Shown in pieces: positions 58,353 through 64,000 of a DNA stretch of 64,000 bases. A program made the position numbers and the translations under genes. Positions within the stretch are counted from its first letter, which is position 1. Each line of letters begins with the position of its first letter. Below the pieces are notes generated by a model. That model was not told where the DNA came from and searched no databases. It was given only the letters and a program-made list of their open reading frames with translations. This DNA is from Tillus elongatus (lineage: Eukaryota > Arthropoda > Insecta > Coleoptera > Cleridae): assembly GCA_964006375.1 (NCBI GenBank), contig OZ023266.1:62556946-62620945 (forward strand), in the 5' to 3' direction.

Positions 58353-58396
58353 AAGTAGATAGTGGGACACCTGGGACCATCCCCTCCACTTTTTAC

Positions 58397-58427
58397 TGCG
58401 CATGCGCGTGACGTCATGCGCATGCGC
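58397..58427. promoter_or_regulatory. Palindromic NRF-1-like / CRE / NRF-1-like cluster
   Basis: TGCGCATGCGC (58397-58407), TGACGTCA (58409-58416) and TGCGCATGCGC (58417-58427) form a 31-bp near-palindrome. The outer sites match the NRF-1 consensus and the centre is a perfect CRE/ATF site. Function in this organism is inference. Confidence 0.5.
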
Positions 58428-58592
58428 TGACCTGCGCAGACCTGTGACAGTTGACAGCTGACCTGTCAGATTTGACAGGTGTCAAATGTCACTGACCTGA
58501 CAGCTGTCAGCTGTCAGCTAACCTGACAGCTGTCAACGTCAGCTGTCACCTGACCTGACATGTGTCAACGTCAAATGTCACCTGACCTGTCA

Positions 58593-58785
58593 GATGACGT
58601 CACAAGCATTCCAAGATGGCTGACCTGTCATAGACAGTCGCAACCCGGGTTCTCTCTATGGAACTAACCTGAGATGACGTCACAAGCATTCCAAGATGGC
58701 TGACCTGTCATAGACAGTTGCAACCCGGGTTCTCTCTATGGAACTAACCTGAGATGACGTCACAAGCATTCCAAGATGTCTGACC
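58593..58785. repeat. 80-bp tandem repeat, 2.4 copies
   Basis: Units start GATGACGTCACAAGCATTCC at 58593, 58673 and 58753. The first two are almost identical and the third is cut short. Each unit carries a TGACGTCA site. Confidence 0.9.
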
Positions 58786-58840
58786 TGTGTGTCCATAGAT
58801 ATCTACAAGTCAGGTTAGCTCTCCATGTGTGTTTGTCTGA

Positions 58841-59013
58841 TTGTTTAGTAAGGTTATGTATTTGTTTATTAAGGTTATGTTCGCTCACGTGTCATCTGTT
58901 TGTTTATTAAGGTTATGTTTGTATTTGTTTATTAAGGTTATGTCATGTGTGTGTTGATTACCATGCATCTGTTTGTTTATTAAGGTTATGTATTTTGTTT
59001 ATTAAGGTTAGGT
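58841..59013 (+). repeat. Short interspersed iterons TTTATTAAGGTTATG
   Basis: Six copies or near copies of TTTGTTTATTAAGGTTATGT at irregular spacing (about 58841, 58861, 58894, 58924, 58970 and 58994). The last reads AAGGTTAGGTG. Confidence 0.7.
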
Positions 59014-59152
59014 GTTCGTAAACACAGCTGTTTGGTTTGTTTATTGTGTTGTTGTTGTTAAGGTGTATTGAAGTTTGTTAGGGTATTTCGTTTTTGGCGG
59101 GAAATTTGAATTTGTTTGAAAATTTCTGTCTGTTGTGTCCAGAGATATGACT

Positions 59153-59217
59153 CATCGAGCTAGAGAATATTCTATTTGTAAAGTTGTAGAGTGTAGAGAA
59201 TATTCTCTAGCTCGATG
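59153..59217. repeat. Inverted repeat with heat-shock-like cores
   Basis: CATCGAGCTAGAGAATATTC (from 59153) pairs with its complement ending at 59217 around a loop of about 20 nt. Each arm contains AGAATATTCT, which matches the nGAAnnTTCn unit. Confidence 0.75.
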
Positions 59218-59346
59218 GGAGACATCTGTTGGACACAGTCATTCGGTTTAGTCACACACACATACATATATGAGGAAGATATATTGAGCGGGTAATTTGA
59301 AATTTTGAATTTAATTTGAAATATGATTTTTGAAAGAAAAGCATTC

Positions 59347-59427
59347 GCCAGAAATTAGATTTGAACCCCCAACCATACAACTTACTAAGATATGCAAACG
59401 TCGCTAAACCGATTATGCTATTCAGAC
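59347..59427 (-). tRNA. tRNA-like segment, probably degenerate
   Basis: Minus strand holds a box A match TAGCATAATCGG (59420-59409) and a box B match GGTTCAAATCT (59367-59357) at tRNA-like spacing. The acceptor arms do not pair well and the anticodon arm is unclear, so this is more likely a tRNA relic or tRNA-derived repeat than a working gene. Confidence 0.3.
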
Positions 59428-61602: not shown

Positions 61603-61698
61603 GATAACCCAGGCTTTGCAGGAACTCAATATTATCGGGACGAAGCGTACCCTTTGACGTGTCTGACTCAACTGAATTTGATGTGGTAGATGCACTTG

Positions 61699-61706
61699 CT
61701 TTTATA
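61699..61706 (-). promoter_or_regulatory. TATA box of the capsid gene
   Basis: TATAAAAG on the minus strand, about 97 nt before the chosen ATG and inside the 122-bp gap after the penton-like gene. Confidence 0.5.
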
Positions 61707-61724
61707 TCCTTGAAGACCAACATA

Positions 61725-62435
61725 CTAAGCAACTTTTATAAGTTTCAAGCGAACAGACACCTCTTCACCTTGAAAGTTGACAGGAACTGAATCTTGGTCG
61801 ACGATGTCGATGCTTATATTGGAAATCTCTTGCTTGTTCACCGGTAAGTAAATTAAATTTTTAGGTTCTATGTCGATTGCGTAGCCAGGATCAACCATCG
61901 GAGCAAACTCATACAGCGTATGTGAGGGTTGTCCGTTATAATAGGAACCAGACACAATATTGGTTTCGATGCGAATCTGTCTAACATCCACTATATCAAC
62001 AGGTAAATCAGATTCATAAAAGGTGTCCGGCTGAAGAACTTGTTTTGAAAAGCCCAACATTCGCCCAATCGAACCATCAAATTCAAAACTGACATTTGTA
62101 TAACACTTTAGTCTGCATTTGATGGTGTTCGGATTAGGTCTCAGAATCAGAGCCTGTTGCTTTTGTTCGTGTGTTGCTGTAGCACCAACAAGTTCATTTT
62201 GAAGTAACTCTTCCAAGTGTGTTATTTCATAAGCACCGGTGGGTATCGTGATGGTTCGCCAACCGGTTCCTTCTTTTACATGAAATTTGTTTTTACCTTC
62301 ATAGATGTTGGGTATGTTGTTGTAGGTGTGAAAGCCTATCAAGGCAACAGCATAATTACCATCCAAAACAATTGGTGGATGGTAGTCTGACGACAGATGG
62401 GAGCTGCGGTCTTTCAACACAAAGGTGTGCGCCAT
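61725..62435 (-). CDS. Penton / minor capsid-like protein (single jelly roll)
   Basis: 236 aa, intact, from MAHTFVLKDRSS. Beta-rich throughout, with YAVALIGFHTYNNIPNI, ITIPTGAYEITHLEELLQNE, SIGRMLGFSKQVLQP and a C-terminal SIDIVDQDSVPVNFQGEEVS followed by VRLKLIK. The motif order, Ile-x-Asp...Gly-Glu near the end, is shared by proteins neighbouring double jelly-roll capsid genes in Polinton/adintovirus-like elements, where they act as the pentameric vertex protein. It starts 32 bp after the end of the upstream minor gene. The same-strand arrangement suggests coordinated late expression. Confidence 0.72.
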   Translation of the reverse strand: MAHTFVLKDRSSHLSSDYHPPIVLDGNYAVALIGFHTYNNIPNIYEGKNKFHVKEGTGWRTITIPTGAYEITHLEELLQNELVGATATHEQKQQALILRPNPNTIKCRLKCYTNVSFEFDGSIGRMLGFSKQVLQPDTFYESDLPVDIVDVRQIRIETNIVSGSYYNGQPSHTLYEFAPMVDPGYAIDIEPKNLIYLPVNKQEISNISIDIVDQDSVPVNFQGEEVSVRLKLIKVA

Positions 62436-62467
62436 GACTGATACACACAGGCTACTGTTTCAGTCTT

Positions 62468-62977
62468 TTATTGCATTGGTTTTTGCAGATACAACCCATA
62501 ACCGTAGCGCTGTTTCTTGAGATACATGCCTTTGCCCAGTCTCTTGCATTTTGGCTTAAATTTCAAGCCACTCCCTCTCCTACCCATCGCGATGGCTTCC
62601 ATTGTTTTGTTGTGTCGTTCTTCCTCCTCTAGTTTCTGTTTCGCAGACTTGGCATCGTTCACGGCTTTGGCAATACCTGCAGCACCGCCACCCAGAGCTC
62701 CTAGTGCTGACAGCCCACCAAATATAAGAGGCAACAACGGAAGGAAGCCTCCACTTTTAGGTATTGGAATAACTCGAGGTTTCTGCACATTCTTACGTCC
62801 ACCAATGTTTCTAACGATTGTATGAGCTATATCAAACACGGCGTTCGCTGTTGGAATAAGGTTTCTATCTTTTATAACTTCCTCAATCAGACTTAGTATG
62901 TTTTTAAAGGGAACCTTCTTCTTTGGCTTCGAGTTGATTACATAAAACCCCTCATCAAGTTTTCTGTTAACTTTCAT
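62468..62977 (-). CDS. Basic minor virion protein with hydrophobic Gly/Ala segment
   Basis: 169 aa, intact. Basic N-terminus (residues 1-25), an amphipathic region, then a hydrophobic Gly/Ala/Leu segment at about residues 76-105 (GGFLPLLPLIFGGLSALGAL), a short charged helix (KQKLEEEERHNKTMEAI), and a basic C-terminal tail with two G-x-Y-L repeats (GKGMYLKK and GYGLYLQK). Comparable small proteins accompany capsid genes of adintovirus-like elements and are thought to resemble adenovirus core or membrane-active minor proteins. This function is inference. Its stop codon overlaps an AATAAA signal (ATGCAATAAAAG). Confidence 0.62.
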   Translation of the reverse strand: MKVNRKLDEGFYVINSKPKKKVPFKNILSLIEEVIKDRNLIPTANAVFDIAHTIVRNIGGRKNVQKPRVIPIPKSGGFLPLLPLIFGGLSALGALGGGAAGIAKAVNDAKSAKQKLEEEERHNKTMEAIAMGRRGSGLKFKPKCKRLGKGMYLKKQRYGYGLYLQKPMQ

Positions 62978-63133
62978 GGTGTTTGTAACGCTAGCAACGT
63001 TTCAGCAAAACCTGTATCTGTCTTTGTTAATAACAACCCTCACTCTGTGACACCAACATGCATACTGACTGGGTGTCTCACTTGCATTCATATATATACA
63101 CACCCAAAAAAATATAGTTTAGTTTAAGTTAAG
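62978..63133. promoter_or_regulatory. Divergent promoter between minor virion gene and ATPase
   Basis: A 156-bp interval between ATGs on opposite strands. It holds CATATATATACACAC near 63088-63103, usable as a TATA element on either strand, and AAAAATATAGTTTAGTTTAA before the ATPase start. It suits coordinated expression of the capsid set and the packaging motor. Confidence 0.5.
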
Positions 63134-63829
63134 ATGCGTACCAGCAAACACGCTTCTGCCTTACCCATTACAAATATAGACGATGTTGTTACGGACACAG
63201 CTCAACAACAACTGAGGCATGGTCCTCTCTTTCCAAACACCGTTCGCTGTATCATATGTGGTCCGAGTGGTTGTGGTAAAACTAATGTCATGCTGAGTTT
63301 ATTGTTTGAAGCAAACGGTTTAAAATTTGATAACGTGTATGTGTATTCAAAGTCTCTGTATCAACCGAAATACAAGATGTTAAAGGAGGTGATGAATGCA
63401 ACAAAAGGTGTTGGTTACTATCCTTATAGAGAAAACGATGAAATATTAGATCCGGCAGATGCCAAGGACAACTCTGTGTTTATATTTGATGATGTAGCTT
63501 GTGACAAACAAGATAAAATAAGAGCATACTTCAGTATGGGCAGACATAAGAATATTGATTCATTCTATCTCTGTCAAACATATACACGAATACCCAAGCA
63601 TCTGGTACGTGACAACACCAATGTTATTGTGTTATTCAAGCAAGATGAAACCAATTTAAAACATGTGTACGACGATCATGTAACCACCGATATGGACTTT
63701 AAACAATTTAAAACTATCTGCCACCAATGCTGGAAAGATAATAAGTATGGTGTGTTGGTGATTGTGAAGGAAAACGATGTACACAAAGGTCGATATAGAA
63801 AAGGATTCGATAGATATATATTATTCTAA
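63134..63829 (+). CDS. A32-like DNA-packaging ATPase (FtsK-HerA type)
   Basis: 231 aa, intact. Walker A GPSGCGKT at residues 43-50, Walker B VFIFDD at 115-120, followed by a sensor-like Gln in YLCQTY (residue 148). Conserved surroundings include NVYVYSKSLYQPKYKML, MGRHKNIDSFYLCQTYTRIP and NVIVLFKQDETNLKHVYDDH. This combination is that of the genome-packaging ATPase of Polintons, adintoviruses and poxvirus A32 relatives, which pumps DNA into the preformed capsid. The length suits the short forms in Polintons. It is divergent from the virion genes. No frame damage is seen. Confidence 0.9.
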   Translation: MRTSKHASALPITNIDDVVTDTAQQQLRHGPLFPNTVRCIICGPSGCGKTNVMLSLLFEANGLKFDNVYVYSKSLYQPKYKMLKEVMNATKGVGYYPYRENDEILDPADAKDNSVFIFDDVACDKQDKIRAYFSMGRHKNIDSFYLCQTYTRIPKHLVRDNTNVIVLFKQDETNLKHVYDDHVTTDMDFKQFKTICHQCWKDNKYGVLVIVKENDVHKGRYRKGFDRYILF

Positions 63830-63845
63830 CAATGGTAGACAGGAC

Positions 63846-64000
63846 AGACAGCTGTCTAACACAGCTGTCATACAGGTGTCTAACACAGGTGTCTAACACA
63901 GCTGTCTAACACAGCTGTCTAACACACAGCTGTCTAACACACAGCTGTCTAACAGACAGCTGTCTAACAGACAGCTGTCTAACACAGCTGTCTAAGACAG
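63846..64000. repeat. Tandem CAGCTGTCTAACA repeat
   Basis: About ten units of ACAGCTGTCTAACA, 12-17 bp each with length variation, beginning right after the ATPase stop and continuing past the window edge. Each unit contains the E-box CAGCTG (GGTG variant in two). Confidence 0.9.

What the first reader, a model, noticed from the sequence alone, without database searches (positions are those of the whole stretch)
58354..64000. Intact virion-assembly module of a Polinton/adintovirus-like endogenous element
Seen: four frames without stops (60397-61602, 61725-62435, 62468-62977 on minus; 63134-63829 on plus), a clear Walker A and B ATPase, a shared divergent promoter and overlap of a stop codon with a polyA signal. 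Known: double jelly-roll capsid, penton, small basic virion protein and A32-type ATPase are the morphogenesis set of Polintons/Mavericks and adintoviruses. Inferred: while every other mobile gene around it is decayed, this set is intact, so the element is young, still mobile, infectious in origin or under selection. Polymerase B, integrase and protease are not in the window and would be expected to the right.
Basis: partly seen in the sequence, partly recalled or inferred. Interest (0 to 1): 0.88.

Follow-up and report, generated by a model that had tools for sequence, protein, structure and literature searches.

The report
Capsid-only satellite Polinton, many copies
A young, many-copied viral transposon in an insect-like genome keeps intact virus-shell genes but has no polymerase, integrase or protease of its own, so it probably moves with enzymes borrowed from related elements in the same genome.

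Summary
Four intact frames encode a double jelly-roll capsid protein, a penton, a small virion protein and an A32-type ATPase. To the right there is no polymerase, integrase or protease: one more gene follows (388 aa, DUF8207-like), then the matching inverted terminus. The element is a closed 10.2-kb unit; three other copies span 9.1-10.6 kb, two with clear 6-bp target duplications.

All 103 scored genomic copies of the capsid gene (window copy included, capped list of best matches) are full length, stop-free and about 100% identical: a young, large amplification.

Other elements in this genome have related termini. Pieces of four ~17-kb elements together encode capsid, penton, protease, PLA2 protein, ATPase and rve-chromo integrase, but of PolB only an N-terminal part was seen. 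Full PolB genes sit on separate elements, one an 18.4-kb palindrome with a 6-bp duplication.

Best reading: a helper-dependent satellite Polinton that kept only the virion module, with mostly synonymous changes among copies, mobilised in trans. Published Polinton gene loss runs the other way (capsid lost). Trans-mobilisation and particle formation are inferred, not shown.

The parts
58208..58353 (.). (TA)n flank in which this copy sits; the C5:6.6M copy also sits in (TA)n, the C4 and C10 copies do not
58354..59218 (.). left terminal inverted repeat, beginning AGTAGATAG; its partner is L009:4538-3667 (99.2%), outside the window
59219..60396 (.). non-coding stretch between the terminal repeat and the capsid gene
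60397..61602 (-). major capsid protein, double jelly roll, 401 aa
   Evidence: PF21738 E 1.9e-77
61725..62435 (-). penton (minor capsid protein), 236 aa
   Evidence: fold matches mavirus and adenovirus pentons
62468..62977 (-). small virion protein, 169 aa, matching the C-terminal part of a PLA2-virion protein of the ~17-kb elements; no PLA2 part here
   Evidence: 61.7% over 175 residues, residues 106-271 of the fusion; PLA2 domain PF08398 at residues 27-89 of it
62978..63133 (.). divergent intergenic stretch, presumed shared promoter region
   Evidence: sequence with TATATATA; promoter function not tested
63134..63829 (+). A32-type packaging ATPase, 231 aa
   Evidence: PF04665 E 3.6e-9
63848..64000 (+). 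start of a 13-bp minisatellite that runs on to L009:582; after it come the 388-aa DUF8207-like gene (L009:675-1841 plus) and the right end (L009:4538), outside the window

Best explanation
A helper-dependent (satellite) Polinton: a 9-10.6 kb element with Polinton-type termini that keeps only the virion module (capsid, penton, small virion protein, packaging ATPase, DUF8207-like protein) and lacks PolB, integrase and protease. Proposed mechanism: its AGTAGATAG ends are replicated and integrated in trans by enzymes of other Polinton-type elements in the same genome (integrase and protease from ~17-kb elements, PolB from PolB-bearing elements with similar ends), while it contributes capsid and packaging proteins. 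Shown: gene content of the window copy, its two ends, 6-bp duplications in two other copies, many near-identical intact copies, and other elements with related ends that carry the missing genes. Inferred: trans-mobilisation, expression and particle formation.
For: Closed unit with both termini, 10,185 bp, no integrase, PolB, protease or matrixin by tblastn. Three further copies of 9.1-10.6 kb, target duplications CCCGAC and GCCTAC. 40 of 40 and 103 of 103 scored capsid genes full length at about 100% identity, the 103 stop-free. Codon variants among 8 copies (window included): 11 synonymous, 5 nonsynonymous; P 7e-5 to 5e-4; dN/dS about 0.12-0.16. Four ~17-kb elements with the same kind of end: integrase rve + chromo, Ulp1-type protease, PLA2, capsid set. 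PolB palindrome with 6-bp duplication and terminus matching 16 of 19 positions.
Against: No expression, particle or mobilisation data. The helper capsid is only 38.5% identical, so the element did not arise by recent deletion from the sampled ~17-kb type. In those elements only an N-terminal PolB part was seen, so a single complete helper was not shown. The codon counts are small and the copies were picked by capsid identity. Two elements with window-type capsid genes are larger, 17.3 and 20.3 kb; the parts read look like patchworks of the small element.
Confidence: 0.57

Rival explanations
1. Ordinary non-autonomous deletion derivative: only the ends matter for movement, and the capsid genes are passengers that look intact because the burst is recent.
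For: Copies are very young; some copies have lost genes: the 169-aa frame is disrupted in L004, KilA-N is reduced to 20 codons in the window copy, L046 carries a rearranged module. Scored lists keep the best matches only.
Against: 11 synonymous to 5 nonsynonymous variants is unlikely under neutrality (P 7e-5 to 5e-4); non-coding DNA near the capsid gene differs more than the genes do.
Confidence: 0.22
2. One part of a multipartite system: capsid-only elements, integrase-bearing ~17-kb elements and PolB palindromes are co-dependent segments that share ends.
For: Similar termini on all three kinds; full-length PolB was not seen in the sampled ~17-kb elements, whose unread remainder of about 1.7-2.3 kb is too small for it; none of 78 listed PolB positions lies in the 36 AGTAGATAG end pairs. 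Segmented insect DNA viruses with PolB are described (Vesanto virus, PMC8363768, passages).
Against: PolB neighbourhoods of another kind also carry matrixin and a 174-aa gene also seen in the ~17-kb elements, so PolB-bearing fuller elements may exist.
Confidence: 0.15
3. Host-domesticated capsid gene family kept for host use, for example virus-like particles.
For: Intact frames with apparent constraint.
Against: More than a hundred dispersed near-identical copies, with element ends and, in two copies, target duplications, look like mobile DNA.
Confidence: 0.03

Closest known systems
Polintons/Mavericks (PMC8097293, PMC4028283; passages seen)
   Same: Capsid, penton and ATPase genes; terminal inverted repeats; 6-bp target duplications; AGT-type ends
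   Different: Vertebrate Mavericks there are 12.7-24.6 kb with PolB, integrase and protease; this one is about 10 kb and has none of the three. PMC4028283 reports elements that lost capsid, protease and ATPase genes, the opposite loss
Adintoviruses/meldviruses (PMC11071296; passages seen)
   Same: Adenovirus-type virion genes; that paper mentions genomes with virion genes but no recognisable PolB or integrase
   Different: A many-copied integrated family beside relatives with the enzymes; not described in the passages seen
Bidna-like segmented DNA viruses, Vesanto virus (PMC8363768; passages seen)
   Same: PolB, insect host, functions spread over segments with inverted terminal repeats
   Different: Different capsid type and no integrated family with Polinton virion genes in the passages seen
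Satellite viruses with their own capsid gene (recalled, no call)
   Same: Own capsid, replication from a helper
   Different: The classical cases recalled are small RNA viruses of plants; this is an integrated DNA element of an animal genome

Membership tests
Polinton/Maverick | double jelly-roll capsid protein | tested here: met
   PF21738 E 1.9e-77
Polinton/Maverick | penton (single jelly-roll minor capsid protein) | tested here: met
   fold match to mavirus penton
Polinton/Maverick | packaging ATPase | tested here: met
   PF04665 E 3.6e-9
Polinton/Maverick | terminal inverted repeats with AGT-type ends and 6-bp target duplication | tested here: met
   ends AGTAGATAG; duplications in the C4 and C10 copies; not assignable in the window and C5 copies, which sit in (TA)n
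Polinton/Maverick | protein-primed PolB | tested here: not met
   no long frame; tblastn with four PolB pieces, best E 0.021, not convincing
Polinton/Maverick | retroviral-type integrase | tested here: not met
   no match of the L050 integrase at E <= 1
Polinton/Maverick | adenain/Ulp1-type protease | tested here: not met
   L047 protease: best E 0.54 over 23 residues
Adintovirus (definition in PMC11071296) | PolB with OTU-like domain and chromodomain integrase | tested here: not met
   absent from this element; an rve-chromo integrase is in L050
Satellite virus | depends on a helper for replication | not testable with these tools
   enzymes absent here and present on other elements; dependence itself is inferred
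Satellite virus | forms its own particles | not testable with these tools
   capsid genes intact; no particle data

The most novel reading that the evidence does not exclude
A division of labour among Polinton-type elements in one animal genome: capsid-only satellites, integrase-bearing elements without full PolB, and PolB palindromes share ends, supply each other in trans and may be packaged in common particles; in effect an endogenous multipartite DNA virus.
Probability: 0.2. Interest if true: 0.88.

Novelty: new variant of a known kind. Interest (0 to 1): 0.67.

Why it matters
Virions of Mavericks have not been observed (abstract start of PMC8097293). An element that lacks the enzymes yet keeps intact capsid genes in over a hundred near-identical copies, with mostly synonymous changes, is indirect evidence that capsids help it spread. 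It is an abundant, nearly uniform target for looking for transcripts, packaged DNA and particles. It is also the mirror image of the capsid loss reported for Polintons in PMC4028283 (passages).

Tried and rejected
Rejected: the element continuing rightwards as a full Polinton (closed); recent deletion from the sampled ~17-kb type (capsids 38.5% identical). The same call showed that the 20.3-kb element at C2:84715896 carries the window-type capsid and penton, so size alone does not mark an enzyme-bearing element.

Led nowhere: viral-contig scans found no relative; PHROGs and PDB sequence searches gave only weak hits; the DUF8207 representative P0125 (pLDDT 74.6) had no PDB fold match at E <= 0.001. 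'DUF8207' comes from precomputed labels of its homologues; my own Pfam scan of it gave only one insignificant hit. The terminus at L030:3324 faces away from the PolB beside it and belongs to a diverged copy. Host identity was not established: 'insect-like' rests on the best named homologues being from beetles, then ants.

Missing: integrase copy number and an unbiased copy set. Genome searches did not complete. The message asked for the same request again; I mostly repeated it, but I went on to another query.

Papers: passages only of PMC11071308, PMC11071296, PMC8097293, PMC12567637, PMC8363768, PMC4028283; PMC8502044 is not held. The listings showed no title or abstract start describing a capsid-only Polinton; bodies were not read, so this is weak evidence of novelty.
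Full report

EXTENT. Ten kilobases beyond the window (L009) hold one further gene of the element, 388 aa, whose homologues carry the DUF8207 label (104 proteins, four of the last rows without the label among those listed). Then come non-coding DNA and the inverted terminus. The left end is window 58354, the right end L009:4538, 10,185 bp in all; the ends read AGTAGATAG. The right repeat of this copy contains an extra internal terminus at L009:3663, which the corresponding parts of L040 and L042 do not show. 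Copies on C4, C5 and C10 span 9,124, 10,301 and 10,600 bp by their end coordinates. The C4 and C10 copies have 6-bp target duplications, CCCGAC and GCCTAC; in the window and C5 copies, which sit in (TA)n, none can be assigned.

WHAT IS MISSING. Fourteen queries taken from other elements of this genome (integrase, four PolB pieces, protease, PLA2-virion protein, matrixin, KilA-N and five unassigned frames) were searched in the two pieces of the window element. Apart from the 169-aa homology, only a 20-codon KilA-N remnant was found (E 2e-7); the next best was E 0.021 for a PolB piece (68 residues, 28%), taken as chance. PolB, protease, PLA2, matrixin and the 174-aa query found relatives in other fetched pieces; the integrase, KilA-N and the other frames had no second copy there, so for them there is no positive control.

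COPIES. DNA search: 40 of 40 scored full-length copies at ~100% identity, 1873 first-look candidates. Protein search: 103 of 103 scored, 7313 candidates, all 401 aa, no stops, rounded 100% identity, the window copy included; 93 share one score and 9 another. Both lists keep the best candidates, so they show that at least about a hundred intact copies exist, not what fraction is intact. L001 is the window copy itself; the seven other copies fetched differ from it by 1 residue in the capsid protein and 0-2 in the penton. Over about 735 non-coding sites in the outer half of the stretch 3' of the capsid gene they differ at 2-33, against 1-2 of 1206 in the capsid gene. Distinct codon variants: 11 synonymous and 5 nonsynonymous over three genes; L004, whose 169-aa frame is disrupted, was left out for that gene. 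With an expected nonsynonymous fraction of 0.74-0.79 the probability is 7e-5 to 5e-4, dN/dS about 0.12-0.16. The copies were picked by capsid identity, which biases the capsid part, and variants shared by descent count once.

OTHER ELEMENTS WITH SUCH ENDS. AGTAGWTAGTGGGMCACYT occurs 120 times forward and 123 reverse; the reversed-pattern control gives 0 and 0. Of the 100 sites listed, 80 pair as facing ends of one kind within 35 kb. AGTAGATAG pairs: 36, of which 23 are 6.4-10.7 kb, 2 are 12.2-13.1 kb, 10 are 16.8-20.5 kb and 1 is 31 kb; AGTAGTTAG pairs: 4, 18.5-29.2 kb. Six of the ten in the 16.8-20.5 kb class were sampled. Four (17.1-17.7 kb; L047-L050, one 5-kb piece each) together encode capsid, penton, Ulp1-type protease (PF02902, E 0.0048, below its cut-off), PLA2-virion protein (PF08398), ATPase, a DUF8207-like protein, integrase (rve 3.8e-11, chromo 0.005) and matrixin. 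Two (17.3 kb, L046; 20.3 kb, L051 and L052) carry window-type capsid sequence and look like patchworks of the small element, one with an open KilA-N/DUF3627 frame. Proteins of the four are 38.5% (capsid), 48% (penton), 62% (169 aa), 78% (ATPase) and 39% (DUF8207-like) identical to the window's. Six of the 103 capsid copies lie in listed pairs: 7.5, 9.0, 9.1, 9.3, 10.5 and 17.3 kb.

POLB. In the four sampled ~17-kb elements PolB shows only as an N-terminal stretch of about 120 residues in a 274-aa frame (38-43% to other PolBs). The pieces cover 0-4.9, 5.0-11.5 and 10.4-15.4 kb from the left end, so the 1.7-2.3 kb left unread cannot hold a full PolB. This is pieced from four copies and was not read in one. 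Full PolB genes (PF03175: 154 matches, 77 of 809 candidates scored, many open frames of 1,020-1,060 aa) lie elsewhere. None of 15 pieces around seven such genes encodes the window's proteins at 1e-4, but 10 kb on each side does not exhaust a large element. None of 78 listed PolB positions falls in the 36 AGTAGATAG pairs; the nearest to any of the 103 capsid copies are 12.5 and 37 kb away. Comparing the lists by eye, each of the four AGTAGTTAG pairs contains at least one PolB match. One PolB element read in three pieces is an 18.4-kb palindrome with PolB in each arm, duplication CTCATT and terminus AGTAGTTAGTGGGCCACTT, 16 of 19 positions as in the window's.

MECHANISM. Shown: a closed, enzyme-less, capsid-bearing mobile element, young and numerous, beside other elements with related ends that carry the missing genes. 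Inferred: PolB primes replication at the shared ends, integrase makes the 6-bp duplications, protease matures particles, all in trans. The terminal tip varies between copies but is the same at both ends of one copy (4 of 4 copies read; one variable base, 36 of 36 pairs). That fits one end being copied from the other, as in panhandle intermediates of protein-primed replication (general knowledge; inference). Capsid retention would be explained if the satellite gains by enlarging the capsid pool or packaging itself.

COMPARISON. By ends and virion genes it belongs with Polintons/Mavericks; PolB, integrase and protease, which define autonomous members, were tested and not met. In print, Polintons without capsid genes are read as moving from virus to transposon (PMC4028283, passages), and genomes with virion genes but no recognisable PolB or integrase are mentioned (PMC11071296, passages). 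A young, many-copied capsid-only family was not seen in the search listings, of which only titles and abstract starts were read.

VERDICT. Real, young and unusual: a new variant of a known kind. The enzymes expected to the right do not belong to this element.

Noticed in passing
window 58363-58378 and both ends of copies L037-L042: The terminal tip differs between copies but is identical at both ends of a copy (4 of 4 copies; one variable base in 36 of 36 pairs).
   Followed up: partly
L034-L036 (C5:117388463-117406826): An 18.4-kb palindrome with a PolB gene in each arm, AGTAGTTAG ends and 6-bp duplication CTCATT; several other PolB genes also lie in facing pairs 7-16 kb apart.
   Followed up: partly
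L023:7339-9159, L027, L029, L033, L049: Matrixin frames, mostly with a hemopexin domain, occur on PolB-bearing and on ~17-kb elements.
   Followed up: partly
L046:3493-4518 and L009:2023-2082: Open KilA-N/DUF3627 frame in one rearranged element; only its last 20 codons remain in the window copy.
   Followed up: partly
window 63848-64000 to L009:582: 13-bp minisatellite CTGTCTAACACAG, 44.8 copies within L009:1-582, between the ATPase and the DUF8207-like gene.
   Followed up: no
window 7353-10287: Open 413-aa frame with a reverse transcriptase domain next to an open 580-aa frame, perhaps a fairly intact retroelement.
   Followed up: no
window 38001-40000: G+C rises to 0.51 against about 0.33 around it; an open 308-aa frame without Pfam match lies at 37924-38850.
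   Followed up: no
L050:4089-4910: A 274-aa frame resembling only the PolB N-terminus; it could be a separate terminal-protein-like gene or a remnant.
   Followed up: partly
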